In this document: positions 24,699 to 56,027 of the stretch, one piece after another | How positions within the stretch are numbered: position 1 is the stretch's first letter | How the letters are laid out: every line of letters starts with the position of its first letter | Origin: Methanobacteriota archaeon | GTDB lineage: Archaea; Thermoplasmatota; DTKX01; VGTL01 | Length of the DNA: 64,000 bases | Direction: 5' to 3' | NCBI GenBank assembly: GCA_016874675.1 | Contig: VGTL01000007.1 | Coordinates: 1 to 64,000, forward strand | Notes under the pieces: model-generated | The model's input: the letters and a program-made list of their open reading frames with translations, nothing else | What the model was told of the DNA's origin: nothing | Databases searched by the model: none | Made by a program: the position numbers and the translations under genes

Positions 24699-25562
24699 TT
24701 ATTTTATCCTCACCTCGACGACCGCCACGCCGAGGTCCAGCCGCCTGACCTTCATGAGGTCCAGGGCCACGAAGCCCGCCCCCACCGTCAGGTTGTACTG
24801 GGTCTGCCAGGTGAGGTTGGTGAGGGGGGTGGTGAGCGTCGAGTTGAAGTACCGGGCCCAGGCGCCGGGATAGGGGGTCGTGAGGTTCAGCCGTATGTTC
24901 CGGCCCAGGGTCCACTCGCCGCCCTCGTAAATGTTGGCGTCGCGCACGACGAGGCGGGTCTCGATGATGGCGTTCTCCGTCCCGGTGAAGGAGCTGAAGT
25001 CGCCCGCTATCGACACGAACAGCATGGAGACGGAGAGGTTGCCGCCGTCGTCCTTGGAGACGCCGAAGTGGGGCGGGGCGCGGACCGCGGCGTCGCGGGG
25101 CCCTGCCACGAGGATCGCCCCCTGCTCGTAGATGTAGGACTGCTGGTCGATGTAGTAGTTCTGCGAGGTGTAGGTAAGGTTGCCGCGGCTCAGGGCGAAG
25201 ATGTCGGCCGGGTCCGTCTGGTTGTGCACGGAGAGGCTGCCGTTGAACGGGTTGCTCACGATTCGGCCGGTGCTCCGGGAGAAGCCCAGGAGCGCGGAGG
25301 GGGCGTTGCCCAGGGTTATCTTGCTCGAGGTGGACACCGGGCTGTCCCGGAGCACCTGCGCGTCTATGTTCTCGCGCAGGGCGTAGAACTGCTCCAGCGT
25401 CCGCCGCATGTGCTGGGACTCGTCGGACTCGCCCCAGGCGGGGACGAAGACCACCATCACGATGGAGATCACCGAGCTGATGATGAGAAGCAGCATCACC
25501 GCCGTCACCGCGCCCGAAATGGCGTCCCGGTCGCGCCCCCAGCCGAACTTACGTCGCCGCAA
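24699..25562 (-). CDS. Pilin-like membrane protein A
   Basis: MRRRKFGWGRDRDAISGAVTAVMLLLIISSVISIVMVVFVPAWGESDESQHMRRTLEQF: short basic leader, hydrophobic helix, beta-rich C-terminus. Confidence 0.75.
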   Translation of the reverse strand: MRRRKFGWGRDRDAISGAVTAVMLLLIISSVISIVMVVFVPAWGESDESQHMRRTLEQFYALRENIDAQVLRDSPVSTSSKITLGNAPSALLGFSRSTGRIVSNPFNGSLSVHNQTDPADIFALSRGNLTYTSQNYYIDQQSYIYEQGAILVAGPRDAAVRAPPHFGVSKDDGGNLSVSMLFVSIAGDFSSFTGTENAIIETRLVVRDANIYEGGEWTLGRNIRLNLTTPYPGAWARYFNSTLTTPLTNLTWQTQYNLTVGAGFVALDLMKVRRLDLGVAVVEVRIK

Positions 25563-25568
25563 TGTCCA

Positions 25569-26489
25569 TCACGTCCGAAGCTGCATCTCCACTATCGCTA
25601 TCCCGAGCTCCAGGCGGGTCACGCCCGCGAAGGTGGCGTTCACGGACCCCGGCCCGACGGTGACCGAGTAATCGGCCGGGAGGAGCCCCGCATCCGGCCG
25701 CCCCAGGGCGGTGTTGAGGAAATCGGCCCAGGCGGAAGGATAGCCTGTGGTGATGTTGAGCGTGGTGCCCTTCCCGAGGGTCCAGTCGGTGCCCGAGTAG
25801 GTGGTGAGGTCGTAGACGTCGAGCGTGGTCTCCAGCTGCACGTCGCCAGTGCCCTCCCGGGCGGTGGCGGCCCCTCCCAGGGACACCAGCGTGATTGAGA
25901 CCGTGTAGTTGCCGTCGGCCTCCCTCCGGGCCTCGACGTGCGGCCCGGCCTTCATCACGGCCCGGCCACCCTGCACTATCAGGAGCGCGCCGTTCTCGTA
26001 AACGAAGGTCTGGTCCACGTAGTACGTGTTGGCCGAGGAGTAGGTCAGCTGGCCCCGGGCGATTCCCTGGGAGTCGTTCCGGTCGGTGGTGTTGGAGACC
26101 ATGTAGACCCCGGTTTCGGGCCGGAACCTGAGGGCGCCCGGGGCCCTCGTGATGTGGAAGACCGGGCCGCCCTCGTCCCCGATGGTCAGGCGGGTCGTGT
26201 AGGTCGAGCCCTTGCCGGCGAGGATCTGGACGTCGATGTTGTTTTTGAGCTCGAGCATCTGCGTCTGGATGCGCTTGAGCTGGGCCGCCTCCGTGTCCTT
26301 GCCCCAGATGGGCACGTAGATGCTCATGAACATCGACATGGCCCCCACGGCCACCATCAGGATGAGCAGCGTGACCACGATGCCCGAGGCCGCCCGGCGG
26401 TCCCGGCGCCAGTGGTGCCTCAGGGTGCGGTGGGAGGTGAGGGGCAGCGGGCAGCAGGGAGCGGTGACGGGATGATTCCCGTCGTCCAC
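25569..26489 (-). CDS. Pilin-like membrane protein B
   Basis: WRRDRRAASGIVVTLLILMVAVGAMSMFMSIYVPIWGKDTEAAQLKRIQTQ; same architecture as A and C. Start uncertain (GTG 26489 lies inside the repeat element). Confidence 0.7.
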   Translation of the reverse strand: MDDGNHPVTAPCCPLPLTSHRTLRHHWRRDRRAASGIVVTLLILMVAVGAMSMFMSIYVPIWGKDTEAAQLKRIQTQMLELKNNIDVQILAGKGSTYTTRLTIGDEGGPVFHITRAPGALRFRPETGVYMVSNTTDRNDSQGIARGQLTYSSANTYYVDQTFVYENGALLIVQGGRAVMKAGPHVEARREADGNYTVSITLVSLGGAATAREGTGDVQLETTLDVYDLTTYSGTDWTLGKGTTLNITTGYPSAWADFLNTALGRPDAGLLPADYSVTVGPGSVNATFAGVTRLELGIAIVEMQLRT

Positions 26490-26562
26490 CGCTGCCCGCT
26501 GCCCGCTCCCCGCTCCCCGTTCCTCCCGCTGCCCGCTGCCCGCTGCCCGCTGCCCCCGTCCG
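26438..26562. repeat. Heptad-type hairpin element 6
   Basis: gaggggcagcgggcagcagggagcgg ... ccgctgcccgctgcccgctccccgctccccgttcctcccgctgcccgctgcccgctgcccgctgccc. Confidence 0.85.
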
Positions 26563-26563
26563 A

Positions 26564-27445: not shown

Positions 27446-27488
27446 CCTTCTCGCTCCCGAATTATCATTGTTTCATTGCCTTTTATAG

Positions 27489-30400
27489 TTATTCTGTCGG
27501 GAACCAACAGTCGCCCGGGCGAAAACGACGCTCGACCGGCAGGAACCGGGTCGCGGGACCGGCCGGAGCCCCCGACCCTTCCGGTCCGGCCGGCTCCGGC
27601 GGGACCCGTGCCCCGTCGTCGGTCCCGGTCACGCCCCGACCGCCTTCCGCCGAGGGCCCGTCGTCGCAGGAGCGCCCGGTGCCGGGCATCGAGGGTGCGC
27701 TGGCCGCCGACCGTCCCTGCCCGGTCGTGGTGTTACCCGTCACGGTGACGTCGTCGATGAAGAACCCGCCGAACCCGGCGCCGAGGTCCTGGTGGTGGTT
27801 GACGGTGTCGTTGCGCGTGACCACGCGGAAGCGTATCTGTATGACCGAGCCGGCCCAGCCCGAGAGGTCGCAGTTTAGGCGCGTGAGGGTGCCGGAGCTC
27901 ACCCAGTTGCCCCCCAGGTTCACGCCGGTGTAGCTCGTCCCGTCGGGCCCGGCGGCCTCCGTCCCGGAGACGTTCCAGGCCGAGCGCACGCCCATGTTGA
28001 GCTGGCGCCAGCTCAGGCCGTTGTCGCCGGAGACCTCCACGCGGAACCCGTCCGGGGGCCTTCCCTCGGGGTAGAGGATGTTGAAGCGGAACAGGGCGTT
28101 GAGCCGGACGTCCTTGGCGCGGCTGAGGTCTATGGGTATCGTGACCAGGCTGTTGTCCAGGCCGCCCTTCAGGGTGTCGATGCCGGCGCGCGGGTTGTGG
28201 TTCCACCAGGCGCGGGTGCCGCTTGCGGCGAACCGGCCGTCGGCGTAGTCGTCGCCGTACATCAGGCCCTCCTGCACGAGCTCCCACTGGTCCGTGGCGG
28301 CGGCCGTCACCGCCGCAGCGTCGGAGCGCTGGACGCGTATCTCGACGTCGTCTATGGCCCAGCCGAAGCCCGTGCCCCCGCCGCAGAACAGGTACAGGAA
28401 CCGGACCCTCACGTACTGCTGGCCGATGTACGGGGACAGGTCCGCCTGCACGAAGTCCCAGGTGAACTTCCCGGCGCCGGATATCCCGTTCCAGCACCAG
28501 CGCATGTCCGTGCCGGCGCCGTCCCTGAGGTGGGCGCTGCCCCACTCGGAGATCTTGAGGTTGTTGGGGTAGGGCTGGGTGGGCGCCAGGTAGCGGTAGG
28601 TCCAGGGCCCGCCGGCGCCCGGCGCCGTGCCGACCTGGAGCACGCCCCCGTTGGAGCCGACCTTGAGGTTGTACTTGTGCCAGAAGGTGAGCTTGGCCGA
28701 GGCGACGCCGGTCAGGCCGAAGGTCGGCGTGGTGATGGACTTGTCGCGCGGGACCTCGTCGCCGTCGTTCCAGTAGGAGGTGAAGCTCTGGGGCGGCGGC
28801 CCCGCCGGCGGCGTCACCGCCGTTATGAGGACGTCGTCCACGGACCAGCCGGTGTCTATGTTGTTGTCGTTGTTGGAGACGAACCGGAAGCGGAGCCTCA
28901 TCTGGTTGGTGAGCGGCACGGTCCCCGAGACGGTCATGTCCAGGCCCAGCACCGCAGCCCAGGTGTTGTTGTTGGTGTCGGACTGCCACACCGTCACCCA
29001 CGTGGCGCCGTTGTCGTTGCTGATGTCGGCGTAGCACCAGTCGTCGGCGAAGACGTCCGTGCGGTGCCAGAACGTGAGCAGGGGCGAGGTGTAGCCACCC
29101 GAGAGGTCGAAAATAGGGGAGACGAGGGTGTCGTCGTCGTTCTTGCGGTACTGGTTGCCGGCGTCGCGGTAGCACCGGTACGAGTAGCTGTCGGTGTGTG
29201 CCCAGGTCGTGTCCCGGTGCCAGTAGGAATCGGCCGGGGCGGCGTTGGTGATGGTCCACCCGGGCGGCGGCTCCAGCTCGAAGCCCTCCTGGATGAGGGT
29301 CACGGTGGCCTGCGGCGCGGCGGCGCCCTCCCCGCTGCGGCCCCAGCCGAGGGTGCCCGTCACGACCACGTCGTCCACCGACCAGCCCTGGGCGTTCGTG
29401 TTGCCGTCGGACCACATGCGGAACGCCACCTTCATCTGCGAGGTCGGGGTTAGGGCGTTGAGCAGGACGCCGGTGACGGACGCCGGGTTGGCGTTGTTGG
29501 CCCCCTGGATGTTGTTGGCGAAGCACTGGACGCCCACCCAGGTGGCGCCGTTGTCGTTGCTCAGGAACACGAAACCGGCGTCGAAGCCCCCGGCGCGGCG
29601 CATCGCCGGGCGGTGCCAGAAGCCGAGCTGCAGGTCGCGGTAGCCGTAGGCGTCGAAGGTCGGCGTGATGAGCCAGTCGTCGTTCCAGTTGGCGTAGGAG
29701 CCGACGCCGTCGTAGCATCGCCAGGAGTGGATTCCGGAGCCCCTGAAGTCGTTGGTCTGGTACCTCCAGAAGGTGCCCGCGGCGGCGTAGTTGCGGGTCG
29801 TCCAGCTGCCCGCGCCGGGCTCCATGTTGTCGGAGAAGAGCACGATCCTGGGGCTTGAGCCCGCCGCGTCGGGCGGGGGGGCCGGCCGGGCCGCCGGCGC
29901 GCCGCCGCGGCCCAGAGTCTGGGCGAGCTCCTCTATCTTCCTGGAGATGTTTTCGAACACCTGGGCGATGTCGCTGGGGCCGGGCGAGTAGTAGTACCAC
30001 CCGCCGCCGCCGGGGGTGATGTTCGCCTCGGCCGCCAGGTTCACCATGTTCGTCCTTATGGTGGCGGTGATGCCGGCGCCGTAGCCTATGAGGAACACCG
30101 GTATCGGCTGGGTCTTGACGATGGCCATGGCGGCGGCCAGGCCGGCGGCCACGCTCGGCTGGTCCGAGTTGCTGTCCCCGTCGGTCAGGACGACTATGCA
30201 GCGCACTCGGGTGTTGTCCCCGTAGTCCCGGATGTACCTGTAGCTCACCACCACGGCGTTCCAGAAGGGCGTGCCCCCGTCGATCGTTATGTTCACGATG
30301 CCGTCGGCAAGCAGGCTCTTGTCGCCGGTGAGCGGGGTGAACAGCCTGGTGTAGTAGGGCGTGAGCGGCGGGTTGGGGGCGCTGTTGAGCGGGTAGTTCG

Positions 30401-33400
30401 TGGTGAAGGCCGCTATCGCCCCCCGGTCGCTCGTGTGCATCCGGTTGACGAACGTGAACATCGCCGACTTGGCGCCCTCGGCCCTCGCCGGCGTGTCCCA
30501 CTCCATGGACCCCGTGGCGTCCAGCGTCAGGATGACGTCCACCGGCGTGCGCGAGGTGGCGACGGGCTCGTGCATGTAGAACGCCCTGTCCTGGCTGTGG
30601 TACTGCTTCGTGATGTTCGCGAGGCTGGCGTTGTCGGTGGTGTTCCTCCAGCCGTTGTACTCGGCCCAGCTGCCCAGAATGTCGCTTGCGACCGGCCCGG
30701 GGTCGAGGTACTCCAGGGTGGATTCGCCGTTGATGCGGGCGATGGTGGAGCTGTGGGACCACTTCCCGGTCCCGTCCTCCATGTCGTCGTAGAAGAAGTA
30801 TACCTGGAGGTTCACCCGGGCGTCGTTGTTGAACTCGAAGACCTCCCCCAGGAGGTCGTCGGGGTCGACCCGGACCGACATCACCCGGTTGCCGGCGAAG
30901 AGGGGCGTCCAGATGACCTCCACGAGGGCGAAGGAGTCGTGCTCCACGGAGATGGAGACCGAGTCTATCACCGTGCCGCCGTCGCTGAAGCGCACCACGG
31001 CGTCGCCGCGGGTCCCGCCGGGGTTCCAGACCCTGGCCTTGAGCATGTAGGATTCGCCCATCATGGGCTTCATGTCCCGCAGGGGCTGCAATGTCGTGTG
31101 GAAGAGGTCCAGGTGGGTGATGCGCAGCTCGGTGCGCTCGTCGTACATGTTGAACCAGCCCATCACTAGGTAGGCGAGCTCGGCGTTGCAGTCCTCGTTG
31201 TCCGTGTAGGAGATGAAGCTCGGGTCCCAGCCGAAGACCACCGTGCGGAAGTTGGCGGTGACGTTGTCGTGCCTGATCGCTATGAACGGCCGGGAGAGCT
31301 GGACGTCGTCCACGCGGGCCGTGCCGGTCCCTATCGCCACCTCGAAGCCGTCCACCTCCCGGATGTTGAGGCCCCCGCCCGCGCCCTCGCGCAGGTCCAG
31401 GAGCAGGTCCCGGGTGACGGTGTGCCAGCCGTTGTCGGCGGTGTAGGCCCCCAGGCCGTGGTGCACCGGCTCGGCCCCCAGGAGGCTTGTGTCCGAGTTC
31501 GTGTAGGTGAGCGTGTGCTTCGTGCCGACGGTGTCCGTGAGGTGCCAGACGAAGGTGTAGGGTATGGCCGAGCGGAAGCTCCACCGGGCGACGGAGCGCT
31601 GCTCCTCCTTCCAGGGCAGCGAGTTGGGGTTCTGGTCGGACGCCTGGCTGAAGTCGCCCACGATGAAGGAGTTGGGGTTGATGTGCGCGCCGGTCCGGGC
31701 GACCTGTATCACGTTCTGGCCGCGCAAGGGGTCGTAAACGTTGGTTATCGTGGAGGAGGTCAGGGGCTGGACGACGCGGGCGTACCAGCCGGCGGTGGTG
31801 CCGTCCTTGCCGTCGGAGTAGACGATCTCGTTTGGGGTTGTGATGTCAGGCATCGGCTTCTGGTAGAGCATGCCCAGGCCGTCGTTGTAGGGGACGAGCT
31901 TGTGGGCGGCGTCGGCGTAGGTGGGCGTCGCCGGGTACCTGGTCCCGTGGGCGATGGGGTCCAGGTTGGCGCCCTCCAGGTGATCGGGCGTCCTCTGCCC
32001 GACGGGGTTGTCCACCCGCGCCAGCCGCAGGTAGTCCCGGACGAACGGGTCGGCGCCGCCCGTGTAGTCGCCGTTGGGGACGGCCCGGGGCCCGACCAGC
32101 CACAGGTACCGGCCGTCCCCCTTGTCGAGGAAGGTCTTGAGGCTGGCCTTGTCCGTGGCGGTGAGCGCGTTGCCGGCCTGGCCGGTCACCCATATTATGG
32201 CGTTGTAGAGCTCCATCTTGGCGATTCCGGGGCCGTCGCCCGCGCCGGTGGTGTTGACCTGGTCGTAGGTGTAGCCCAGAAGGTCGAACGCCCGGGTCAG
32301 GTTGGCGGTCGAATCGTAAAAGAGCCCGCCGTTGTTGGGGCTGCCGTCGTCGTCAACGACCAGCGTTCCGTAGCGGACGAACACGGTCCGGGCGAGCGAG
32401 GCCGCCACCTCGTTGTTGTTCTCGTTGAGCTCCTGGATGTAGTCGTAGGGGTCGACCTTGCCCAGCACGGTGTGCTCGCCGATCCGGTCCGCGATCCAGC
32501 CCATGGTCACCTTGATGAAGCCGCCCCGCCCGGGCACCTTCAGGCTGGCGTTGCCGGTGTCCTGCGGGATCCATATCTCCGAGGTGGGCGGGTCGAGGGT
32601 GGTGTTGCCCCCGCCTGCCTCTATCGTCACGTGCACCGGGTCGAACACGATCCCGTCCACGTAGAACCCGACCTGGAGCTGGGGCCGGCTCTGGTCCACC
32701 GGCTCGTCCCCGACGCCGTTGTTTCGCAGGTACATCGTGATGTTGACCATCTCCATGAACGCCGGCGTGGTCTTGCTGAACCGCTGGTCCGAGACCCCGA
32801 GGTCCCGGCCCCAGGCGGCGCCCACTCCGAACCACTCGAGCATCTCGTAGGTCATAATCGAGCGCTCGTTGGGCGACCTTATGCGGGAGGGCTCGAACCC
32901 GAAGAGGCAGGTCTTGTAGGTGTCGTCGGTCGGGGTGCCGTTGGTGGTGGCGTTGAACAGGATGGCGAAGGCGTTGCCGCCCCCCGACTCGTTGAACACT
33001 GCCGCGCCGGTGGGCAGGAGCCTCATGGTGTCGGAGCGGTCCGGAAGGCCGGTGGGGAAGGGCAGGTCCATGACCATGTTGAAGCCCGCCATCGGGTTCC
33101 GGCCCTCCACATCGTTCGTGAGCCCCACGTTGAGATGGCCCAGGGGGGTGGCCGGGCTCACCTTCATGTATGTGTTGAGGAAGGCGTTGGTCCGGCCCAG
33201 GCCGCTCAGGACGTCCTGCCCGATGAGCCAGAGCTTGCCCTTGTCGTCGAGGTAGCGGCCCAGCTGGACCTGGTCGTTCGCCGTGACCGTGGTCCCGGGC
33301 TCGTAGCCTGTGAGCCAGATGACGAGATCGTAGTCCACGAGGGGCCTCTCGCCGGCGTCGAAGAGGGGACCGTCCCCCCCGCCCGGGACCGTGTGGACCG

Positions 33401-37600: not shown

Positions 37601-40423
37601 AGGGTTCAGGTAGGTCACGCCCCGGGCGTCCGCCCGCGGGGTCAGCCGGGAGCCGCCGGTGACCGGGCCGAATGTCCGGCTCGTGGTGTAGTTGATGCCG
37701 TGCCCCACCGGGTCGTCCCGCACCCCGAGGAGCGGGTCGGGCATCCCCACGCCCCGGTTCACGGCCGAAACGTGCAGGAAATCGTAGAGGAACGAGCCGG
37801 CGCCGTAGATGCCGGTGGGGAACATGTCCTGGCCGATGAGCCAGAGGCCCCGGTCGTCCCCGGCGGACAGGAAGCCCTTGAGGTTGGTCTCGTCCTGGCT
37901 GGTCAGGGGGTTGGGTGCCCCGGGGGCGCACTGGCCTGTGAGCCAGATGACCGTGTTGAACCTGCGCAGGTAGGATTCGGACGGGCCGTTGATGCCGGGG
38001 CCCGGCACGACGTACGTCGTGGCCGTGTAGCCCAGCCGCTCCAGGGCCCTCTGGAACTCGAACGTGCTGTTGTAGAAGGTCGCCATCGCCCGGTTGTTGG
38101 GGCTGTCGTCGTCGTCCACAACGAGTATGCTGTACCGGACGACCAGCGAGGACGTGGCGGAGCCCCACACCTCGTTGTTGTCCTCGTTGGTCTCCGCAAT
38201 GAAGTTGAACGGGTCCACGCTGACGCGCACGGCGTGGCTGCCGACGCGGTTGGCCAGCCACACTATCGTCACCCGGACCACGCCTCCGTCGCCCGGGACC
38301 CCCGGCACCTCGACGGGGTTGGTGGTCATGGAGCCGTTCATCAGGGTGTCGTTGATGTACACCTGGTAGGGCGGGATGGGGGAGTTGTCCATGAGGAACA
38401 GCACCAGCACGCGGTCGCCGCCCTCCGGCTCGTACCCCTGGCCGTTGTTGCGCACCCAGACGGTGATGTTGACCTCTTCCATGAAGTCGGGGTTGAGCTT
38501 GCCGATTACCTGCTCCGACAGCGCCAGGTCCCGGCCGTAGCGGGCCAGGCAGTCGAACCACTTGAGCATGTGGAAGGTCAGGTTGGCGCGGTCGTTGGCG
38601 CTCCTGAGCTGGGAGAACTCGAACGAGAAGAGCGCCATCGTGTAGGTGGGCCCGGAGGAGTTGGTGGTGGCGTTGAACATCAGGGCGTACTTGGAGCTCG
38701 TGGAGGAGTTCCAGAGCGCCGCCACGGAGCGGCTGTCGTTGACCAGCTTGTCCGCGAGGTCCGTAAGGCCTCCAGCCCACGGAATCGAATTGACGGGAAG
38801 CGTCATGTTGCACGTGACGAAGTTCTCAGGCACGCCCTCCAGCGGGTTGTACAGTCCGGCGTCCAGCACCTGCCCGGAGACGTGCAGGTAGCCGCTCAGC
38901 CAGGCGGGCGCCGTGCTCCGCAGGTCGTTGACGAGGTCCTGGCCGATGAGCCAGAGCTTGCCGCCGTGGTCCATGTACTGTGAAAGCGACGCCATGTCGT
39001 TGGGGGTGAGGGTGGAGGTCCTCTCGTGGCCGGTGACCCAGATGACCAAATCGAAGTCGGCGAGCCGCCGCTTGGCCGGCCCCGTGTCGTACTTGGGGCC
39101 GTCGCCCCCGCTCACCTCGTAGTAGGTGTACTCCGCAGACACGGCGCTGAGGGCGGCCTCCACCGCCGAGGTGGCGTCCTTGAGCGTCCCGGGCCCGGCC
39201 TTGTCGTCGTCGACCAGGAGCACGGTCGGCAGGACCTCGATGTAGACCGTCCGGTTGTTGTTGTCGGGGTTGGCGTCGTCGGGGGGGCCGTTGATCACCG
39301 AGACGTTGGCGAACATCCGGTGGATGCCGCCGAAGCTGGGCAGCCAGACCGTGTCGACCTCGAGGAGCTGGCCGGCGGACACCGAGAGGTTGTAGTCGGT
39401 GAAGAGCTCCACGCCGTTGTCCCAGTAGGTGACGCTCGCCATCGCCGGCACGCCGCCCTGGTTGGCTATCCGCACGAACATCTTGACGGCGTCGCCGTGG
39501 ATGGGGTGGTTGTTCGAAAACGATATCGAGGTGATGTTGAGGTCGGGTGCATCGGGCGTGGTTATGCCGGGACCGATGCGTATCTGCCTGCTCGCGTAGT
39601 TGTTCGTGAAGACGCTCTCGTTGCGCAGGGGGACCGCCCTGACGTAGACCGAGTGCGGCCCCCAGGCCGTGATGGGCCACGGCACGCTGACGACGGCCGT
39701 GTCCCCGGGGTTGCCGGAGGAGTTCAGGAAGGGCACCAGGCGGGGCTCGAGGGCCAGCGCCGTGTACATGAACACGGACGAGGCGACGGTTATGTTGTTC
39801 ACAGGCACCCGGCCGAAATTGTGGACCACCACCTGTACGGCGAGGATGTCGCCCTCCACGGGGGCGTTGTCGCCGTCGTCGACGAGCGAGCCGGCGCGCC
39901 AAAACGATATGTCGTCGGCCGAAAGGCCCACGTCCGGCAGCAGGGAGTAGTCCTGGGGCCGCCGGATGAACTGGTCGGAGAGCACCCGGGAGTCGCGGGT
40001 GTTCACCACCACGACGTGCACCCGGTCGTCGGGGGAGACCACGGCGCTCACGTTCCTCGTCCAGACCTCCCCGACGCCCAGCGCGCCGTCGGGGTGCCCC
40101 TGCGAGATGGAGAAACGGGCCGGCAGGCTGTAGTCCTTTCCGATCTGTATCGTCACCTGGTCCTGCCGGAGCACGGCGCCGCCGACGTGCTCGATGGTGA
40201 CGTTCGTGCCGTCGAACGAGGCGACCGTGTCCGCCTCGAGCGTGCCGGCCGGCGGGGGCAGGCTCATGAGCTGCGTCGCCAGGGCCGAGAGCATGATGAC
40301 GGAGGTCACGACGAGCAGGATGTCCCCCAGCGTCTCCGACACGCCCCGCCGGTCGTCTTGGAACCTCCGGCCGCCCCGCCCCCGCACCCCGCGCCCTGCA
40401 CCCTGCGCCCTGCACACTGTCAT
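34667..40423 (-). CDS. Giant surface protein 2 (1918 aa), same family, with vWA
   Basis: N-term DDRRGVSETLGDILLVVTSVIMLSALATQL; vWA LALVFDTSNSM..WTPIWLA..VALCDGQD; shared C-terminal module GGFYIDDVTVFGNTTTG. ATGA overlaps at both ends. Confidence 0.88.
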   Translation of the reverse strand: MTVCRAQGAGRGVRGRGGRRFQDDRRGVSETLGDILLVVTSVIMLSALATQLMSLPPPAGTLEADTVASFDGTNVTIEHVGGAVLRQDQVTIQIGKDYSLPARFSISQGHPDGALGVGEVWTRNVSAVVSPDDRVHVVVVNTRDSRVLSDQFIRRPQDYSLLPDVGLSADDISFWRAGSLVDDGDNAPVEGDILAVQVVVHNFGRVPVNNITVASSVFMYTALALEPRLVPFLNSSGNPGDTAVVSVPWPITAWGPHSVYVRAVPLRNESVFTNNYASRQIRIGPGITTPDAPDLNITSISFSNNHPIHGDAVKMFVRIANQGGVPAMASVTYWDNGVELFTDYNLSVSAGQLLEVDTVWLPSFGGIHRMFANVSVINGPPDDANPDNNNRTVYIEVLPTVLLVDDDKAGPGTLKDATSAVEAALSAVSAEYTYYEVSGGDGPKYDTGPAKRRLADFDLVIWVTGHERTSTLTPNDMASLSQYMDHGGKLWLIGQDLVNDLRSTAPAWLSGYLHVSGQVLDAGLYNPLEGVPENFVTCNMTLPVNSIPWAGGLTDLADKLVNDSRSVAALWNSSTSSKYALMFNATTNSSGPTYTMALFSFEFSQLRSANDRANLTFHMLKWFDCLARYGRDLALSEQVIGKLNPDFMEEVNITVWVRNNGQGYEPEGGDRVLVLFLMDNSPIPPYQVYINDTLMNGSMTTNPVEVPGVPGDGGVVRVTIVWLANRVGSHAVRVSVDPFNFIAETNEDNNEVWGSATSSLVVRYSILVVDDDDSPNNRAMATFYNSTFEFQRALERLGYTATTYVVPGPGINGPSESYLRRFNTVIWLTGQCAPGAPNPLTSQDETNLKGFLSAGDDRGLWLIGQDMFPTGIYGAGSFLYDFLHVSAVNRGVGMPDPLLGVRDDPVGHGINYTTSRTFGPVTGGSRLTPRADARGVTYLNPAGSSYNAVRFDSSSMGYRTLLCGYDLSFIAGRGTVPETEYESELVYMALHWLGLPETRVELRVTEMDMYYGNLTPIQGMHPAMGNSYVVKAVVANPGGARGDCSVRFLDGSTVIGTSFVSVAPDGETIAEIIWTPLFAGDRKISVQLDPDSVVSEIMRFNDLASVNLRSYFFYDDMEDGARNFRHEATVVRINGESALEYIDIGNVSTGVASSWQALSGFAQTTRDYHSMNSSFHMKEPGPPVDLALVFDTSNSMTGQPLADEKAAALTLVNNLTNDSRVAIFCMASNPGQRFVRPFTLLDAAGRAGVTTTINGLSVQAWTPIWLAFGEAIQYVIDFRSPDRVPAVVALCDGQDYQGSDGTIGLPPSWPADYNQLELGSDDNPWGYAPWWNWGVTQVAGSHTGKYFGKAAIPGYWFTQSFSVADGTRKGLLNAPIPLFTIGIDLEHDPNLPAFSSTSVAANVVDRAQNAFTVYTGAGSQESGTPEYNLYRIATTSPKGSYFYAPSSLDLFGVFQAVGEQLSSLVLARGAAAPGPEAPGPGAPAPGSRTGGSAEGAAGARSPNIPGPNDRYALTQSIDLRGVSSARLSFWHKYSITMGLSGCVVLVGTSADNTTFTYKYVTPGQSYKGNLKTTITRLDDLGSEIRWAWNGISGKGDFDWEFAEVNLNSFCGQQYVRVMFAYLRAGGGGGLGWWIDDVEVRVSRSNSVAVTDTSRDQWELVRKGTLLGGGADTADAWSGDWAWLCHSPSPSVDYLRPGLDNSLLTVPIDLRSALDARLIAKFKFNINYTDGRPPDGFRVEVSSDGGVSWRPINFGVRSAWKVSGTEAAGPDGTSFTGVDLGGNWVHSTSLTRLNCDLTGWAGSVIQLRFRVVTRTDSVNHYHSVTGWGGFYIDDVTVFGNTTTGGRSAGGPGAAPDGAPAAAGDAVGTGDPAPSPQAAPPAGTGPASPQAARPAPAVPVMTILSRNELIVSDSQRGHRQ
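40375..40418. repeat. Heptad-type element 7, inside the 5' end of giant protein 2
   Basis: ccgcccccgcaccccgcgccctgcaccctgcgccctgcacac; translated on minus as MTVCRAQGAGRGVRGRGG. Confidence 0.75.
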
Positions 40424-43400
40424 CGCCGGTCACCTCCGGGCGCATGGAAACGGGCGGCCCGGGTGGCCGCCGGCAGGCAGGATCGCGGCGGCCCGCCGGC
40501 GTCCCCGGCCGGCGCCTGCAGGGGGCCGGCGGCCTCGCCAGTGGCCGCCGTGCCTCCATCGCCCGGGGTCTCCCCGGGGCCGGCCCCACCCTGCATCTTG
40601 CCGGCTCCATCACTGCTGTGATGGGAATCAGGCACCGGCCCGCCGCCCGGCTGTGACCGGACCGCCCTGCCCCCGCCGGTGGTGGTGTTGCCCACCACCT
40701 GCACGTCGTCGATGTAGATGCCGCCGAAGCCGGCGCCGGCGCTCTCGTAGTGGGTGGCGATGTCGGTCCGGGTCACCACCCTGAAGCGGAGCAGGATGAC
40801 CGAGCCCGCCCAGCCCGAAAGATCGCAGTTGAGGCGGGAGAGGGTGTTGCCCGCCACCCAGTTGTCCAGGATGTTGACGCCTGTCATGCTGGTGCCGTCC
40901 GGGCCGGCCGCCTGGGACCCCGAGAGCCCCGACGAGGAGCGCACGCCGCGGTTGAGGGCCGTCCAGGTCTCGCCGTTGTCGGAAGAGACCTCCACCCGGA
41001 AGCCGTCGGGGGGCCGCCCGTCCGAGGCGTTGATGTTGAACTTCAGGTTGCAGTGCAGGGCGGCGTCCAGGGCGTTGGTGAGGTCGATGGGGACGGTGGT
41101 GAGGCTGTTGTCTATGCCGCCCTTGAGGTGGTCCACGCCCGCGCTGGGGTTGTGGCACAGCCAGGCCCGCACCCCGCTGAAGGAATCCGCGACATCGGTC
41201 CCTCCCAGGGGCGTTCCCCGGGTGACCAGCTCCCACTGGTCGTCCACCGATGTGGTGGGCCCGGCCGCGTCGCCCCGCCCGGCCTTGACGACCACGTCGT
41301 CGATGTACCAGTAGCCGACGCCGGTCATGGTGGCGTTCAGGTAGAGGAACTTCACCTTCACGTGCACCTGCCCGATGAACGGGGAGAGGTCCACCGTGAT
41401 GTAGTCCCAGCCTCCCAGCCCGTTGGTGCTCACGCCGTTGTAGCACCAGCGCATCTCCCGGCCGAAGTCGTCCCTTATCCTGCTTGCGGGGATGTCGAAG
41501 CGGATGTTGCCCGTGTAGGGCCTCGTGGGCGTGACATAGCGGTACTTGTAGTTGTTGTCGCCGGCGGTGTCGTTCCCCACCATTATGACCACGCCGTTGG
41601 CGCCCACCTGCATGGAGTACCTCTGGTAGAAGCTGAGCCCGGCCGAGGAGTACCCGACCAGCGAGAACGGCTGGGTGACGATGTAGAAGTCCTCGTTGGC
41701 GCGCCCGCCGGCCCCGCCCTCGCCGCCGCTCCCCGCCGCCCGCTCCCCGCTCCCGGACGACCTCCGGTCGTCTTCGCCTAGACGAGCTTCGCTCGTCTGC
41801 GGTTCGCTCGCCTGCGGTCCCGCTCCCTCCACCGATCGCATGATGCCCGGCGTCTCCACCGCCCCCTCGAAGGGCAGGATGGTGTGTATCCAGCAGTTGC
41901 CGCTGCCGCCGACCAGGTACAGGAATCGGTGGTTGGCCGTGAAGTTCCACCAGTGGTTGTCGTCGAAGTCCGAGGTGGATTCGTCGAAGCCGGTCCCCGG
42001 CGGGTTGCCTATCGTGGGCCAGAGCTGCCAGACGAACTCCCCGCCGCTGTCCGTGGCGAAACGGACGATCTGCAGGCCGGCACCCCCGCCGAAGACGGTC
42101 CTCCACTGGAAGGTGTGCGCCCCGGCGGGCAATGTGAAGTTGGCAAAGCCGCTCCCGTCGAGGTCGTAGGGGACCCAGATCGTGGCGTCCAGCATCGACT
42201 GGTTCACGGAGAGGGGCCCGGTCCCCATGACGGTCACGTAGACCGGGACGGTCGACAGGTACCTCAGGCCGTTCTGGTTCACGCCGTTCAAGCTGCCCAG
42301 CACCGGCAGCCCGGGGTCGATGTCGATGGTGATGGCCGTGCCGAACGAGAAGTCCTGGTAGAGGTTGTAGAGGCGGTTGGCGGCCTGGGCGGTGTTGGTC
42401 CCGTAGAGCTGGGGCGTGGACATGCGGTAGAAGCCGGGCTGCTCGGTGACCAACCGGTAGTCCCACACGCCGTCGGCGTAGAAGTGGTCCTGGTACCTGG
42501 GGCAGTTGTTGGCGAAGGCCTTGCCCGCGTGCTGCTCCTGGCCGAACACCACCGTGATGTTGCGGTCCGAGGTTATCCTGAAGTAGTGGAGGCTGTTGTC
42601 GTTGGGGGGCCCCATCCGGCTGAAGACCCTGGAGCTGTGGGGGTCCACCCGCTGGTTGAGCAGCGACCAGCCGCCCCAGCCCGAGGCCTCTGTCGACTCG
42701 TATATGTCGATGTCCAGGGCCTGGGCGTCCTCTATGTTGGAGACGAGGAAGCGCCAGGGCCACCCGCCGTTGCTCCTGTACATCACGAAGTACAGCTCCT
42801 TGCCGTAGGTGTAGCCGGTGGTGGACATGGCGTTGTCGGCCTCGTCGTTGTCGTTGGAGATGCGGTAGAGCAGTATGGGCTTGGTGGCGGTGACGTTGGC
42901 CACGGCGTAGGAGTGCGGGGCGCCGAGGTAGGTGTGCCAGCGCTCGCCGGCCATGAGGTTTCCCGACACGTCGGTCTCGAGAGTGGCGCCGTAGGTGCCG
43001 GGCAATGCCGATATCGCCACCCAGGTGACGGTCACCTGCGTGTTGTCCTCCAGGGCTATCGCGGCGACGTGGGTGTCCCCCCCCAGCCGGCCGGCCAGGT
43101 CGCCCATCACGGTGAAGTTGCGCCCGCAGGCCAATCCGTCGTCATGGTTGGCCACGTTGACGTTGGAGCCCTCCGAGGAGGTGACCACCACGAGCAGCGG
43201 CCCGGTGCTGTGTATCCTGTAGAGCGCACCGGCGGTCTGTTGGTGGTATATGGCCACGCGGCCCTTGGCGAGTATGCCCGTGTAGAGGAGGTCGTACTCG
43301 AGGGTCCCGGTGTTGAACCTCTCGACCGTGTAGCTGGCCTCCTTCTTGATGGCGACGATGTAGTATCCCTGGGCGAAGGAGACGTTCCAGGGGTCGTAGG

Positions 43401-46400
43401 TCAAAAAGAAGGTGTAGGTGTAGTCCTCCACCGCCGGCGCCAGCATGCGGTAGCTTCTGGGGTAGGTGCGGTAGTCCGAGGTGGTGGCGCACACCCCCAG
43501 GGAGGCGGACCAGTCCCGCACTATGTTGGTGTTGACCGTGCCCGGGTCCATGTACTCCAGGGGGGTCTCGCCGTTTATGCGCAGCAGGGTGGCGTCGTGG
43601 TTCCAGTTGACGGTCCCGGACTCCAGGTCGTCGAAGAAGAAGTAGCACTGGATGTTGATGCTGGCGCGGTTGTTGAACTTCATGACCTCCGCGACCGAGT
43701 TGTCCGGGTCCACGACCGCCCCGACCGTGCGGCTCCCGGCGAACAGGGGCGTCCACACTATCTCGGCCAGCGCCCGGGAGCCCGCGTCCACGGAGACGGT
43801 GACGGAGTCGATGACGGTGGTGCTGTCCATGAATCGAACGACCGCGTCGCCGCGAGTTCCCCCCGGGTTCCACACGACGGCCTTGAGCACGTACGACTCG
43901 CCTATCATGGGCTTCATCTGGCGCAGGGGCACCATGTTGCCGAAGTAGAGGTCCTGGAAGGTGATGCGCAGCTCGGTGCGCTCGTCGTAGAGGTTGAACC
44001 AGCTCATTATCATGTAGACGAGCTCCATGCTGTAGCTCTGGTCGGTCGAGTAGGAGACGAAGCTTGGGTCCCAGGCAGTGAAGACGGTCTTGAAGTTGAA
44101 CTCGGAGTTGGAGTAGCGGACGCTGTTGTACGGGCGGTTGAGCGACAGGCCGTCCAGAAGGCCGGTCCCGACGTTCATCCAGACCTCGAAGCCGTCGACG
44201 GAGGCGATGTTGAGCGCCCCGTTGCCGGTGCCCTCCCGCAGGTCCAGGAGCAGGTCCCGGGTGGCGGTGTGCCACAGGCCGTCGGCCGTCCAGGCGCCGA
44301 GCCCGAACTCGGGGTCCGCCCCGGAGAGGTTGGTGTCGGTGTTGGAGTAGTAGAGGATGTGGTGGCCGCTGAGGGTGTCGGTGACGTGGAACCCGACCGT
44401 GTAGTCGATGGCGAAGCAGAAGGACCACTGGGCCACCCACCTGTCACGGTCCAGCCAGGGCAGGTCCTGGGGGTTCCAGTCCAGGGAGGGCGCGTGGTCG
44501 CCCAGAAGGAAGCTCGAGTCCTGGACGTTGACGCCGGAGCGCTCCAGCCGGATGACCCGGGAGCCGCGGGCGGGGTCGTCCACGTTCGATATCGTGTTGG
44601 TGGTGCCGACGGGGTTGATGCGGTTGTACCAGCCGGCGGTGGAGCGGTCCTCGGCGTCGCAGTAGGTCTCCCGGTTCATGCTGTTCAGGTCGGGCATCGG
44701 CGACTGGTACAGTATGCCCTCCCCGTCGATGTAGGGCACCAGCCTCCCGCCGCTGTCGGCAAACGTCGGCGTGGCGGGCATCCTCATCCCGTGCGAAACC
44801 GGGTCCTGGTCGACGCCCATGAGAAACGAGGGCGTCTTGGGGGCGGCGGGGTCCGTCACCCTGGCGACCCTCAGGAAGTCCCGGAAGAACGCCTGCGCGC
44901 CGTCGAAGTAGTTGCCGACGGGAACGGCGTCCTGCCCGACGAACCACAGGTAGCGGCCGTCGCTCTTTTTGAGGTAGCTCTCCAGGTTGGCCTGGTCGGC
45001 CGCCGTCAGGGAGGAGGCGGACTGCCCGGAGCACCATATGATGGCGTTGTACTGCTCGAGCCTGGCAGGCGCGGGGCCGTCCGCCGCCGGGTCCGGGACC
45101 ACGAACAGGTCGTAGTCGTACCCGAGGGCGTCCAAGGCCTGGCTGATGTTTTGGGTGGCGTTGTAGTTCGTGGCCCCGAGGCGGTTGTTGGGGCTGTCGT
45201 CGTCGTCGACGAGCAGCGTGCCGTACCGCACGAAGAGCTTGCCGTCGCAGATGGACGGGTCCACCTGGTTGTTGAGCTCGTTGTTCTCGTCGATGTAGTC
45301 GTAGGGGTCGACCCTCACGGTGACGTTGTGCTCGCCCACCTTGCTGGCCACCCACGCCGCCGAGACCTTGATGTATCCGCCCCGGCCGTTGATGACCATC
45401 CCGGGATCGGGGGTGCTCTGGGGTATCCAGATCTCGGAGGTGGGATAGGTGAATGTGTACGTAACGGGCCCTCTCTCGACGGACACGCTGTCGGGGTCGA
45501 AGGTCTTGCCGTCCATGTAGAACCCTATCTGCAGTATGGGGGACACGAAGCCCGGGGGCTCGTCGTTCAGCCCGTTGTTGCGGACCCAGACCGTTATATT
45601 GACCTTCTCCATGAACGAGGGATTGGTGACGTTGAAGCGCATGTTCGAGATCGCCAGGTCCCGCCCCCACCGGGCCGAGCAGTTGAACCACTCGAGCATG
45701 GAGTAGATGATGAGAGACCGGTCGTTGGGGCTCGAGACCTTGCCCAGCTCGAAGCTGAAGAGCGAGGCCATGTAGGTCTCGGAGCTGCCGTTGGTGGTGG
45801 CGTTGAAGAGCAGCCCGACCGGGCGCTGGGCGCCGTCCCTCTCTATCAGGGCGTAGGCCGAGCGGGAGGTGTTCTGAACGAAGTCGCCGCGGTTGCTCAG
45901 GCCTCCCGTGAACGGGGTCCCGAACGTGAAGTTGGTGCCGGTCAATATCCGGTCGCCCTGCAGCGGGGTGGGGGTCCCGGCGTTCAGCGGGTAGGGCGTG
46001 GCCGGGTCCAGCTGCATCCGGGAGCCTAGGAAGGCGTTGCCGTACCCGAGGTCGCTCACGACGTCCTGGCCGATGAGCCACAGCCTGCCCCGGGACTCGT
46101 GCAGGTAGCGGGTGAGCTCGGACTGGTCGTTTCCGGTCAGGGTGTTGGCCTCCTCGAACCCGGTCATCCAGATGACGAGGTCGTACTCGACGAGCGGGTG
46201 CTCCCCGCCCTCGTACCTGGGGCCGTCGCCGCCGCCGACGGCGTGCACGCCGTAGGTCGCGCCCACGGCCTGGAGCCCGGCCAGCATGGGCGTCACGACG
46301 TCCCGGGGCGAGCCCTCGCTGGCTCGGTCGTCGTCGACCACGAGGATGGTCGACAGCACCTCGATTTGGGCGGTGCGCTCGTCACCGGTGGCGTTGGGGT

Positions 46401-47508
46401 CGGTGACGTTGACTATTATGGTGTGGAGCCCTCCCGAGGAGGTCTTCCAGAACACGCTGGACAGGGACTCGCCGCCGACGGGGACCCCCAGGCCGCTGTC
46501 GGTGCCGATGAGGGTGCCCTTGTTGTTGTCGTAGTACCTGACGGTGGCGGTGGCCGGCACCCCGCCCTGGTTGATTATCCGCGAGCTGATGACTATCGTG
46601 GAGCCGTGGGCCGGGTGGTCGGAGGAGAAGTCGATGTCGCGGATTCTCAGGTAGGGGCGGGTGGGGCTCGAGGCCATGACCGGGTACCCCACGCGGTACT
46701 GCTTGGTGGCGTAGTTGTTGGCATAGCGGCTCTCGTTGAAGACGGGGATCACCTTGACATTGATGGCGTGGAGGCCCCAGGACCCGTTCTCGATGCGGTA
46801 GCTCATCGATATGTTGGCCGCGTCCGATGCGTTCAGGAGGGGGATCGTACGGTTGCCCACATCGTAGGTGCGGAGGTCCAGAGTGGAGTAGTCAGTCACG
46901 CGCACCTGGACGTTGGGAACGGGGGCCCCGCCGTAGTTGTGGATGGTGCAGTTGATGGTGATGGTCTCGTTGGTCATGGGGAAGTTGCCGCTCTCGTTGA
47001 TCGTGCCGTTGCCCCGGATGAGGTATATGTCCTGGGCAGAAAGCCCCAGGTCGGGGAGCCCGGCCGCCTCGGGGCCGCGCTGGACTATCTTGTTGAAGAT
47101 GACGCGGTGGCCCACCTCGTCGATTATCTGCAGGCGGATGACGTCGGTGGAGTTGGAGGCGTAGGGCACGGACCAGGTCTGTCCCACCGAGAAGCGGGCG
47201 CCGCCCCCGCGGCCATCGGCGACCGTGCGGGAGGCCTTGAAGGTGTCGTTCGTGAAGAGGTAGAAGCGGGTGGTCTGGTTCGTGAGGGCGTCCCCGCCCC
47301 TGTGGGCCACGGTCACGTTGGAGCCGTCGTAGGTGGCGTCGAGGCTCGCCATCACCCTGTCCTCGGGCGGGTCGAGGGTCCCAAGCTGGGCGGCGAGCGC
47401 GCCCATCATGACAACGGCTATGCTGACGAGCAGGACATCCCCGACGATCTCGGAAACGCCCGTCCTGCCCTGCCGAAAAGACTTCCTGAAAACCTGGCCG
47501 CTCCTCAT
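40420..47508 (-). CDS. Giant surface protein 3 (2362 aa), same family, different central module
   Basis: N-term RQGRTGVSEIVGDVLLVSIAVVMMGALAAQL; CARDB and VDDD modules; central FLTYDPWNVSFAQGYYIVAIKKEASYTVERF... instead of vWA; shared C-terminal module GGIYIDDVQVVGNTTTG. Confidence 0.87.
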   Translation of the reverse strand: MRSGQVFRKSFRQGRTGVSEIVGDVLLVSIAVVMMGALAAQLGTLDPPEDRVMASLDATYDGSNVTVAHRGGDALTNQTTRFYLFTNDTFKASRTVADGRGGGARFSVGQTWSVPYASNSTDVIRLQIIDEVGHRVIFNKIVQRGPEAAGLPDLGLSAQDIYLIRGNGTINESGNFPMTNETITINCTIHNYGGAPVPNVQVRVTDYSTLDLRTYDVGNRTIPLLNASDAANISMSYRIENGSWGLHAINVKVIPVFNESRYANNYATKQYRVGYPVMASSPTRPYLRIRDIDFSSDHPAHGSTIVISSRIINQGGVPATATVRYYDNNKGTLIGTDSGLGVPVGGESLSSVFWKTSSGGLHTIIVNVTDPNATGDERTAQIEVLSTILVVDDDRASEGSPRDVVTPMLAGLQAVGATYGVHAVGGGDGPRYEGGEHPLVEYDLVIWMTGFEEANTLTGNDQSELTRYLHESRGRLWLIGQDVVSDLGYGNAFLGSRMQLDPATPYPLNAGTPTPLQGDRILTGTNFTFGTPFTGGLSNRGDFVQNTSRSAYALIERDGAQRPVGLLFNATTNGSSETYMASLFSFELGKVSSPNDRSLIIYSMLEWFNCSARWGRDLAISNMRFNVTNPSFMEKVNITVWVRNNGLNDEPPGFVSPILQIGFYMDGKTFDPDSVSVERGPVTYTFTYPTSEIWIPQSTPDPGMVINGRGGYIKVSAAWVASKVGEHNVTVRVDPYDYIDENNELNNQVDPSICDGKLFVRYGTLLVDDDDSPNNRLGATNYNATQNISQALDALGYDYDLFVVPDPAADGPAPARLEQYNAIIWCSGQSASSLTAADQANLESYLKKSDGRYLWFVGQDAVPVGNYFDGAQAFFRDFLRVARVTDPAAPKTPSFLMGVDQDPVSHGMRMPATPTFADSGGRLVPYIDGEGILYQSPMPDLNSMNRETYCDAEDRSTAGWYNRINPVGTTNTISNVDDPARGSRVIRLERSGVNVQDSSFLLGDHAPSLDWNPQDLPWLDRDRWVAQWSFCFAIDYTVGFHVTDTLSGHHILYYSNTDTNLSGADPEFGLGAWTADGLWHTATRDLLLDLREGTGNGALNIASVDGFEVWMNVGTGLLDGLSLNRPYNSVRYSNSEFNFKTVFTAWDPSFVSYSTDQSYSMELVYMIMSWFNLYDERTELRITFQDLYFGNMVPLRQMKPMIGESYVLKAVVWNPGGTRGDAVVRFMDSTTVIDSVTVSVDAGSRALAEIVWTPLFAGSRTVGAVVDPDNSVAEVMKFNNRASINIQCYFFFDDLESGTVNWNHDATLLRINGETPLEYMDPGTVNTNIVRDWSASLGVCATTSDYRTYPRSYRMLAPAVEDYTYTFFLTYDPWNVSFAQGYYIVAIKKEASYTVERFNTGTLEYDLLYTGILAKGRVAIYHQQTAGALYRIHSTGPLLVVVTSSEGSNVNVANHDDGLACGRNFTVMGDLAGRLGGDTHVAAIALEDNTQVTVTWVAISALPGTYGATLETDVSGNLMAGERWHTYLGAPHSYAVANVTATKPILLYRISNDNDEADNAMSTTGYTYGKELYFVMYRSNGGWPWRFLVSNIEDAQALDIDIYESTEASGWGGWSLLNQRVDPHSSRVFSRMGPPNDNSLHYFRITSDRNITVVFGQEQHAGKAFANNCPRYQDHFYADGVWDYRLVTEQPGFYRMSTPQLYGTNTAQAANRLYNLYQDFSFGTAITIDIDPGLPVLGSLNGVNQNGLRYLSTVPVYVTVMGTGPLSVNQSMLDATIWVPYDLDGSGFANFTLPAGAHTFQWRTVFGGGAGLQIVRFATDSGGEFVWQLWPTIGNPPGTGFDESTSDFDDNHWWNFTANHRFLYLVGGSGNCWIHTILPFEGAVETPGIMRSVEGAGPQASEPQTSEARLGEDDRRSSGSGERAAGSGGEGGAGGRANEDFYIVTQPFSLVGYSSAGLSFYQRYSMQVGANGVVIMVGNDTAGDNNYKYRYVTPTRPYTGNIRFDIPASRIRDDFGREMRWCYNGVSTNGLGGWDYITVDLSPFIGQVHVKVKFLYLNATMTGVGYWYIDDVVVKAGRGDAAGPTTSVDDQWELVTRGTPLGGTDVADSFSGVRAWLCHNPSAGVDHLKGGIDNSLTTVPIDLTNALDAALHCNLKFNINASDGRPPDGFRVEVSSDNGETWTALNRGVRSSSGLSGSQAAGPDGTSMTGVNILDNWVAGNTLSRLNCDLSGWAGSVILLRFRVVTRTDIATHYESAGAGFGGIYIDDVQVVGNTTTGGGRAVRSQPGGGPVPDSHHSSDGAGKMQGGAGPGETPGDGGTAATGEAAGPLQAPAGDAGGPPRSCLPAATRAARFHAPGGDRR
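41700..41770. repeat. Heptad-like tract 8, inside giant protein 3 coding region
   Basis: ccgccctcgccgccgctccccgccgcccgctccccgctcccgg, encoding SGSGERAAGSGGEGGAGG; followed by hairpin agacgagc-ttc-gctcgtct. Confidence 0.55.
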
Positions 47509-47573
47509 CGCGTTCTCCCTCCGGTCCCGGGTGCGTGCTTTGCATGCATCTCACCGTTATTATTAGGTTGGGA

Positions 47574-47593
47574 GAATATATTCTGAATATATC
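47574..47593. promoter_or_regulatory. Candidate operator/promoter element upstream of the giant-protein operon
   Basis: GAATATATTC (palindrome) followed directly by TGAATATATC; near-direct repeat GAATATATtCT/GAATATATCT, 66 bp upstream of ATG 47508. Confidence 0.45.
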
Positions 47594-47602
47594 TTGGGAA
47601 AA

Positions 47603-47742: not shown

Positions 47743-47773
47743 CTAATAAATATCGCCCAGTCGATTATCGCGC

Positions 47774-52429: not shown

Positions 52430-52477
52430 GGGCCGATAAATCCCATCCGGGCCAATAAAGCTTGTCATGGACGGAGG

Positions 52478-56012: not shown

Positions 56013-56027
56013 GCGGACGGCATTTCA

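What the first reader, a model, noticed from the sequence alone, without database searches (positions are those of the whole stretch)
24699..47508. About 23-kb operon of giant pilin-headed adhesins plus three small pilin-like proteins
Three giant proteins (2362, 1918, 2393 aa) each begin with a Pilin_N-like segment (R.G|(V/A)(S/A)E..GD(I/V)LLV) followed by CARDB modules, two LVDDD..(L/I)W(L/M/V)TG GATase-like modules and shared C-terminal jelly-roll-like domains. The genes overlap by ATGA. They are followed by three paralogous small pilin-like proteins. This looks like a dedicated surface filament or stalk-adhesin apparatus. No assembly ATPase, TadC-like platform or prepilin peptidase is in the window, so assembly would act in trans or the N-helix is only a membrane anchor.
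Basis: partly seen in the sequence, partly recalled or inferred. Interest (0 to 1): 0.8.

Follow-up and report, generated by a model that had tools for sequence, protein, structure and literature searches.

The report
Giant archaeal pilins with swappable heads
This archaeon carries a row of three enormous surface proteins, each built by adding about 2,000 residues of rod and binding-head domains to a normal type IV pilin, together with three small partner pilins, and relatives show that they belong to a known kind of pilus machine whose binding heads can be exchanged.

Summary
The host is a Thermoplasmatota MAG. All three giants (2362, 1918 and 2393 aa) pass the Pfam Pilin_N cut-off, have one hydrophobic helix (the N-terminal one), and their profile matches solved archaeal pilins. 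A cassette nested in a jelly-roll domain is a MIDAS-bearing VWA domain in two giants and an unrelated ~560-aa module "X" in the third. Across 22 homologues the split is exactly 19 VWA and 3 X. Between two genera the first giant keeps its scaffold (48-74% identical) but has a different head. The three small proteins are DUF7289 pilin-like proteins. In 22 genomes all 33 DUF7289 genes lie beside giants or near a PilB-type ATPase gene (usually directly adjacent). In two genomes giants, DUF7289, PilB and two platform genes form one cluster. The window's genome has such a PilB-PilC-PilC-PilB cluster, a PibD-like peptidase and two ordinary pilins on other contigs, so assembly in trans is credible. 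Best reading: giant modular type IV pilins that present exchangeable adhesive heads on an archaeal type IV pilus, a new, very large variant of a known kind. Tip location, ligand and processing are inferred.

The parts
40420..47508 (-). Giant modular pilin 1 (P0001, 2362 aa): pilin head, CARDB/Ig arm, LVDDD1, CARDB, LVDDD2, beta-sandwich, CARDB, jelly-roll with nested X cassette, C-terminal jelly-roll, low-complexity tail
   Evidence: single hydrophobic segment at residues 21-39
47074..47508 (-). Pilin module of giant 1 (residues 1-145), class III-type signal with predicted cleavage G17|VSEIVGD
   Evidence: Pilin_N E 4.9e-10; PDB pilins 8fj5, 9myg, 8gi2, 8rey; AlphaFold helix 16-43 + strands 54-142; motif conserved in 22 homologues
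45664..46353 (-). LVDDD module 1 of giant 1 (residues 386-615), alpha/beta fold; function unknown
   Evidence: AlphaFold secondary structure; V391 D392 D393 D394 invariant in all 22
44689..45216 (-). LVDDD module 2 of giant 1 (residues 765-940)
   Evidence: alignments A1/A3
41707..43437 (-). X cassette of giant 1 (residues 1358-1934), nested in a jelly-roll; replaces the VWA found in the paralogues
   Evidence: found in 4 of 390 Thermoplasmatota genomes; the three complete copies are all inside giant pilins
40672..41268 (-). C-terminal jelly-roll (InhA-like MAM) of giant 1, residues 2081-2279, among the most conserved parts
   Evidence: PF20773; 63-79% identity among the giants of G000 and G001
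34667..40423 (-). Giant modular pilin 2 (P0002, 1918 aa)
36125..36883 (-). VWA head of giant 2 (residues 1181-1433) with MIDAS D-T-S-N-S, T (TPIW), D (LCDGQD)
   Evidence: PF00092/PF13519, family HMM 6.4e-69, motif
27489..34670 (-). Giant modular pilin 3 (P0003, 2393 aa)
29931..30551 (-). VWA head of giant 3 (residues 1374-1580) with MIDAS D-A-T-G-S, T, D
   Evidence: PF13519, family HMM 1.9e-79
28755..29885 (-). Two extra reelin/MAM-like jelly-rolls in the cassette of giant 3 (residues 1596-1972)
   Evidence: PF21471
26564..27445 (-). Small pilin-like protein 1 (293 aa), DUF7289 paralogue
   Evidence: paralogy 26-29% to the other two and 57% to its orthologue in G001; profile E 2.6e-95 (includes itself); no Pfam hit on its own
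25569..26489 (-). Small pilin-like protein 2 (DUF7289); start uncertain, GTG 26489 proposed
   Evidence: PF23960 E 2.4e-6
24699..25562 (-). Small pilin-like protein 3 (DUF7289, 287 aa)
   Evidence: PF23960 E 7.1e-8; the DUF7289 profile's best solved-structure hits are type IV pilins (weak)
47774..50299 (+). Divergent neighbour: wHTH + STAND ATPase + TPR protein, possible regulator (membership in the system not shown)
   Evidence: Pfam; 53% orthologue at the same place in G001, but general synteny there makes this weak

Best explanation
The locus encodes giant modular type IV pilins and their partner pilins for an archaeal PilB-type pilus. Each giant is a complete pilin (helix plus beta domain) whose C-terminus is extended by a rod of Ig-like (CARDB), LVDDD and jelly-roll domains. 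The rod ends in a replaceable head nested inside a jelly-roll: a metal-binding-type VWA domain in two giants and the X module in the third. Proposed working: the PibD-like peptidase cuts after the conserved Gly/Ala. The PilB ATPases with the two TadC-like platforms, encoded elsewhere in the genome, insert the giants through their N-helices together with the DUF7289 pilins and ordinary pilins. The filament then displays the heads at the end of long rods to bind surfaces, cells or polymers. Shown here: domain content, mutually exclusive heads, genetic linkage of giants, DUF7289 and PilB/PilC across families, and presence of all machinery genes in the genome. Inferred: processing, incorporation into a pilus, tip rather than shaft position, and adhesion.
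For: Pilin_N over cut-off in the three giants and detected in 22 of 22 homologues. Profile of residues 1-615 matches solved archaeal pilins (8fj5 E 5.7e-10, 9myg, 8gi2, 8rey) over the pilin region. AlphaFold mean pLDDT 84 with pilin-like helix and beta domain. Cleavage-like motif G/A|xx(E/D/S) and one hydrophobic helix only, no C-terminal anchor. VWA at the cassette site in 19 of 22, X in the other 3, with MIDAS motifs. G079 carries giant, giant, DUF7289-like, DUF7289, PilB3-type T2SSE, T2SSF, T2SSF on one strand. G021 carries giant, DUF7289, giant, DUF7289, PilB, PilB, PilC, PilC. In G356 and G321 giants and PilB share a contig about 10-15 kb apart. In 22 genomes all 33 DUF7289 genes lie by giants or near PilB. 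Own genome: PilB-PilC-PilC-PilB at C4:114-5507 (PilB 54%, platforms 40-41% identical to the G079 genes); PibD-like at C21; two small Pilin_N pilins at C127. Precedent: S. sanguinis PilB, a pilin with a grafted vWA that acts as adhesin (PMC8179133).
Against: No experimental data. In the window's own genome the giants and the ATPase cluster are on different contigs, so the pairing is inferred from relatives. In several families (f43, f48, f49, f52) the DUF7289 gene sits with PilB and not with the giants. No pilin of near this size was met in the papers read, so it is unknown whether a 2,400-residue subunit can be assembled. X and LVDDD modules have no assigned function. The genome also has an ArlI-like and a further T2SSE ATPase, so the cognate machine is not proven.
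Confidence: 0.72

Rival explanations
1. The giants are ordinary cell-surface stalk proteins that keep their N-terminal helix in the membrane as an uncut or cut anchor; they borrowed a pilin-like N-terminus for membrane insertion only and never enter a filament.
For: One hydrophobic helix, very large size, Ig-rich stalk architecture like many archaeal surface proteins. Giants and machinery lie on different contigs in this genome.
Against: The complete pilin module including the beta domain is kept; the cleavage-type motif is conserved across families; giants share a cluster with PilB/PilC in two families.
Confidence: 0.15
2. The set forms a short pseudopilus, as in type II secretion: DUF7289 and giant pilins make a cell-attached piston or platform, and the giants are its displayed or released product.
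For: The DUF7289 profile's weak solved-structure hits include a GspG pseudopilin (E 0.09) beside a PilA; no obvious major pilin gene in the locus.
Against: Two stand-alone Pilin_N pilins of ordinary size exist elsewhere in the genome, as is usual for archaeal pili that use pilins in trans (PMC4858521).
Confidence: 0.1
3. The giants are primarily self/non-self recognition or contact effectors, with head exchange driven by recognition specificity between cells or viruses rather than by surface adhesion.
For: Non-homologous heads at the same site, one head changed between two genera while the scaffold is kept; sequence-homogenised flanks around different heads in G256.
Against: Only one clear switch was seen between the two close genera; the other two heads are retained at 55-64% identity, i.e. 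not hypervariable.
Confidence: 0.15

Closest known systems
Modular type IV pilin PilB (and PilC) of Streptococcus sanguinis (PMC8179133)
   Same: A pilin module with a grafted vWA/MIDAS (or lectin) adhesive module; proposed to be assembled through the N-terminal pilin module
   Different: Processed PilB is 50.5 kDa with one added module and a bacterial N-motif (IPR012902). Here 1918-2393 aa with roughly ten added modules, archaeal Pilin_N, the head nested in a jelly-roll at the far end and exchangeable, two or three copies per operon. The most extreme multi-domain case cited in that survey is 860 residues
Euryarchaeal T4P with the arCOG02911 minor pilin (PMC4858521)
   Same: Secretion ATPase, TadC-like proteins and an adjacent pilin of about 250-550 aa, prone to duplication, with other pilins in trans; Aciduliprofundum boonei is also reported with two ATPases in one locus
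   Different: The text of that census does not mention CARDB or Thermoplasmata, and I found no giant Pilin_N-CARDB-VWA protein described there. Identity of DUF7289 with arCOG02911 was not tested
PilY1/PilC and archaeal DUF2341 tip-adhesin candidates (PMC4858521, PMC8179133)
   Same: Large tip-adhesin candidates accompanying T4P, some with vWA
   Different: Those are not pilins themselves; here the pilin module is covalent and no DUF2341 or PilY beta-propeller is detected
CofB and ComZ large minor pilins (as described in PMC8179133)
   Same: Minor pilins extended by extra structural domains
   Different: Bacterial, with different added folds and without this multi-module rod

Membership tests
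Archaeal type IV pilin (Pilin_N) | Pilin_N profile over cut-off | tested here: met
   40.6, 29.9 and 28.0 bits against cut-off 25.2; detected in 22 of 22 homologues
Archaeal type IV pilin (Pilin_N) | Class III signal: short leader, G/A at -1, hydrophobic helix right after the cut | tested here: met
   Sequence motif in 22 homologues and a single hydrophobic helix in the three giants; the cut itself is predicted only
Archaeal type IV pilin (Pilin_N) | Beta domain after the helix | tested here: met
   AlphaFold helix 16-43, strands 54-142; profile alignment to 8fj5 over positions 12-121
Archaeal type IV pilin (Pilin_N) | Cleaved by PibD and present in a filament | not testable with these tools
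   PibD-like gene present at C21; no protein data
Modular pilin (S. sanguinis PilB kind) | Non-pilin functional module fused to a pilin module | tested here: met
Modular pilin (S. sanguinis PilB kind) | vWA with intact MIDAS | tested here: met
   P0002 and P0003 (DTSNS, DATGS plus T and D). Not met by P0001, which has X instead
Modular pilin (S. sanguinis PilB kind) | Bacterial N-terminal motif IPR012902, used in the published survey | tested here: not met
   N-terminus is archaeal Pilin_N; no bacterial N-methylation family among the Pfam hits. It works like a modular pilin but lies outside the surveyed set
DUF7289 (small proteins) | PF23960 over cut-off | tested here: met
   Two of three over 27 bits; the third only by paralogy and by the custom profile
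arCOG02911 minor pilin | Adjacent to secretion ATPase/TadC; about 250-550 aa | tested here: met
   (adjacent in relatives, not in the window's genome)
arCOG02911 minor pilin | arCOG membership itself | not tested
   no arCOG library available
PilY1 / DUF2341 tip adhesin | DUF2341 or PilY1 beta-propeller | tested here: not met
   absent from Pfam hits
GATase-like (LVDDD modules) | Detectable similarity to a GATase-class family or structure | tested here: inconclusive
   DUF4159 at 0.084 in P0002 and 7.4e-5 in one homologue; no solved-structure match

The most novel reading that the evidence does not exclude
A fixed-site head-exchange system in archaeal pili: tandem giant pilins share homogenised flanks, and within or between lineages the nested head (VWA, X or others) is replaced as a unit, letting one pilus machine acquire new binding specificities without changing its scaffold.
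Probability: 0.4. Interest if true: 0.75.

Novelty: new variant of a known kind. Interest (0 to 1): 0.62.

Why it matters
Modular pilins were surveyed in bacteria, where the most extreme example cited is 860 residues. This set is more than twice that size, is archaeal, and is linked by gene neighbourhood to a defined PilB/PilC machine. It would extend what a type IV pilus can assemble, suggest a function for DUF7289 genes, and offer a natural series of one scaffold with different heads for testing how archaea choose surfaces or partners. It also gives a concrete list of genes for imaging and pull-down work in Thermoplasmatota.

Tried and rejected
Foldseek of the 615-residue model against PDB: hits are transglutaminases, complement and other tandem Ig chains at TM about 0.2, uninformative. 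AlphaFold of the X cassette with three sequences: pLDDT 44, discarded. X cassette against Pfam and PDB: only IgGFc_binding at E 0.06 and nothing in PDB. NCBIfam on giants and small proteins: nothing over cut-off. Named-genome scan: only one giant homologue (Thermoplasmata archaeon SG225.bin14) plus a Cloacimonadota LVDDD protein, so absence from other phyla cannot be claimed. The first MIDAS pattern was too strict and was replaced. Considered and rejected: synteny with G001 as evidence for a functional link of the STAND and Ras genes, because synteny there extends well beyond the locus.
Full report
Observation. They are paralogues: about 1,300 N-terminal residues and about 350 C-terminal residues align, at 39-51% identity over the long N-terminal part and about 50-55% at the C-terminus, while the middle does not. 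Three small paralogous genes follow on the same strand. Pfam finds Pilin_N over its cut-off in all three giants, CARDB two or three times and an InhA-like MAM domain near the C-terminus. The host genome (G000, 3.36 Mb, 189 contigs) belongs to Thermoplasmatota, judged from its closest named relative, a Thermoplasmata archaeon found in the same-phylum search. G079:C1 and that named contig match in length (20,754 bases) and in gene coordinates.

The N-terminus is a pilin, not just an anchor. A profile of residues 1-615 from 21 giants, searched against the PDB, hits four archaeal pilins: 8fj5 (E 5.7e-10, positions 12-121), 9myg, 8gi2, and 8rey, whose chain starts at profile position 17. It also hits proteins matching the Ig-like arm, 2kut, 2kl6 and 3idu. 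AlphaFold (mean pLDDT 84) gives a 28-residue helix, a beta domain of seven strands, two further beta domains and an alpha/beta LVDDD module. The cleavage-like motif (G/A before the cut; E, D or once S at +3) is found in all 22 homologues. The three giants have one hydrophobic segment each and no C-terminal anchor.

The heads. The non-homologous middle lies inside one jelly-roll domain. With family HMMs, 19 of 22 giants carry VWA there and exactly 3 carry module X (P0001, one giant in G079, one in G256), never both. Nearly all VWA heads show the MIDAS D-x-S/T-x-S signature in a pattern search; in P0002 and P0003 the T and D positions are present too. X is found in only 4 of 390 Thermoplasmatota genomes; in the three with complete copies it is inside a giant pilin, and the fourth is a contig-end fragment. 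Compared with its positional counterpart in G001, P0001 keeps its scaffold (45-74% identity by segment, 48-74% outside the second half of the interrupted jelly-roll) but not its head: G001 has VWA. The other two pairs keep their heads at 64% and 55%. BLASTN homology of P0001 and its counterpart stops at residue 1333 and resumes at 2089. Conversely, X of P0001 is 43% identical to X in a different family whose scaffold up to the second LVDDD is only 24-35% identical. In G256 the tandem copies are 92-93% identical just before the head and at the C-terminus but 32% in the head, with DNA tracts of 79% and 85%. These patterns fit replacement of heads as units and homogenisation of the flanks; direction and age of each change are not resolved, and stronger constraint on heads is an alternative reading of the cross-family comparison.

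Assembly machinery. In the genome there is a PilB-PilC-PilC-PilB cluster at C4:114-5507, an ArlI-like ATPase with an ArlH-like neighbour at C10, a further T2SSE ATPase at C123, a PibD-like peptidase (Arc_PepC_II over cut-off) at C21, and two ordinary Pilin_N pilins at C127. The link comes from relatives. In G079 the order on one strand is giant, giant, DUF7289-like, DUF7289, PilB3-type ATPase, TadC-like, TadC-like; its ATPase and platforms are 54, 40 and 41% identical to those on C4. In G021 the order is giant, DUF7289, giant, DUF7289, PilB, PilB, PilC, PilC, with one other gene on the opposite strand between. In G356 and G321 giants and PilB lie on one contig about 10-15 kb apart. A DUF7289 profile finds 33 genes in 22 giant-bearing genomes. 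By their coordinates all are next to giants or near a PilB gene: usually directly adjacent, in G226 and G004 about 1-1.4 kb away. In the window's family, in G017 and in family f11 they are with the giants; elsewhere mostly with PilB. So DUF7289 is the bridge that ties the giants to this machine. This matches the description of a duplicated minor pilin of 250-550 aa shared by euryarchaeal T4P systems (PMC4858521), although arCOG membership was not tested.

Distribution. With a strict threshold the giant scaffold is found in 33 of 390 Thermoplasmatota genomes, 24 of 155 genera. Among loci inspected they usually come as tandem pairs, and as trios in the window's family. Scans outside the phylum were too insensitive to claim absence.

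Interpretation and limits. The best reading is giant modular pilins presenting exchangeable binding heads on an archaeal type IV pilus. The working precedent is S. sanguinis PilB, where a vWA grafted on a pilin binds host proteins (PMC8179133). What is inferred and not shown: peptidase cleavage, entry into a filament, tip versus shaft location, ligand, and co-transcription. The function of LVDDD and X remains open; structure prediction of X failed.

Noticed in passing
window intergenic gaps, e.g. 2430-2610, 17207-17336, 21000-21160, 24345-24427, 26440-26570, 47560-47745, 50820-50979, 52475-52670, 61414-61574: Heptanucleotide arrays (CCTTGCG, GGCGCAG, CCGCTGC types) fill many intergenic gaps, and in three of four tested places form inverted pairs with huge predicted hairpins (-99.6, -134.7, -68.2 kcal/mol). 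None was found in the syntenic relative L082.
   Followed up: partly
window 41704-41818 (P0001), 35960-36025 (P0002), 26440-26489: Short repeats lie inside the linkers at the cassette's 3' edge of two giants and in the leader of the middle small pilin gene, so repeats may have entered coding sequence.
   Followed up: no
window 50188-50820 and L088 16249-17094: A Ras/Rab-like small GTPase gene lies close to giant pilin genes in G000, G001 and also in the distant G256 (36% identity). It may be chance or a polarity regulator.
   Followed up: partly
window 53391-61394: Three tandem surface proteins of 826-873 aa with cadherin/Big_9/PKD repeats and PGF-CTERM-like C-termini (the motif hit in one is below cut-off), possibly a second surface array.
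   Followed up: no
L084-L086 next to giants: In families f48, f49 and f52 the giants are followed by large secreted proteins whose sequence looks like an M14-type carboxypeptidase (judged by eye, not searched).
   Followed up: no
L106 73-792 and window 52689-53318: A PHP-like gene that sits 1.4 kb before PilB in G001 has a homologue about 5 kb from the giants in the window (by eye), hinting that the two loci were once closer.
   Followed up: no
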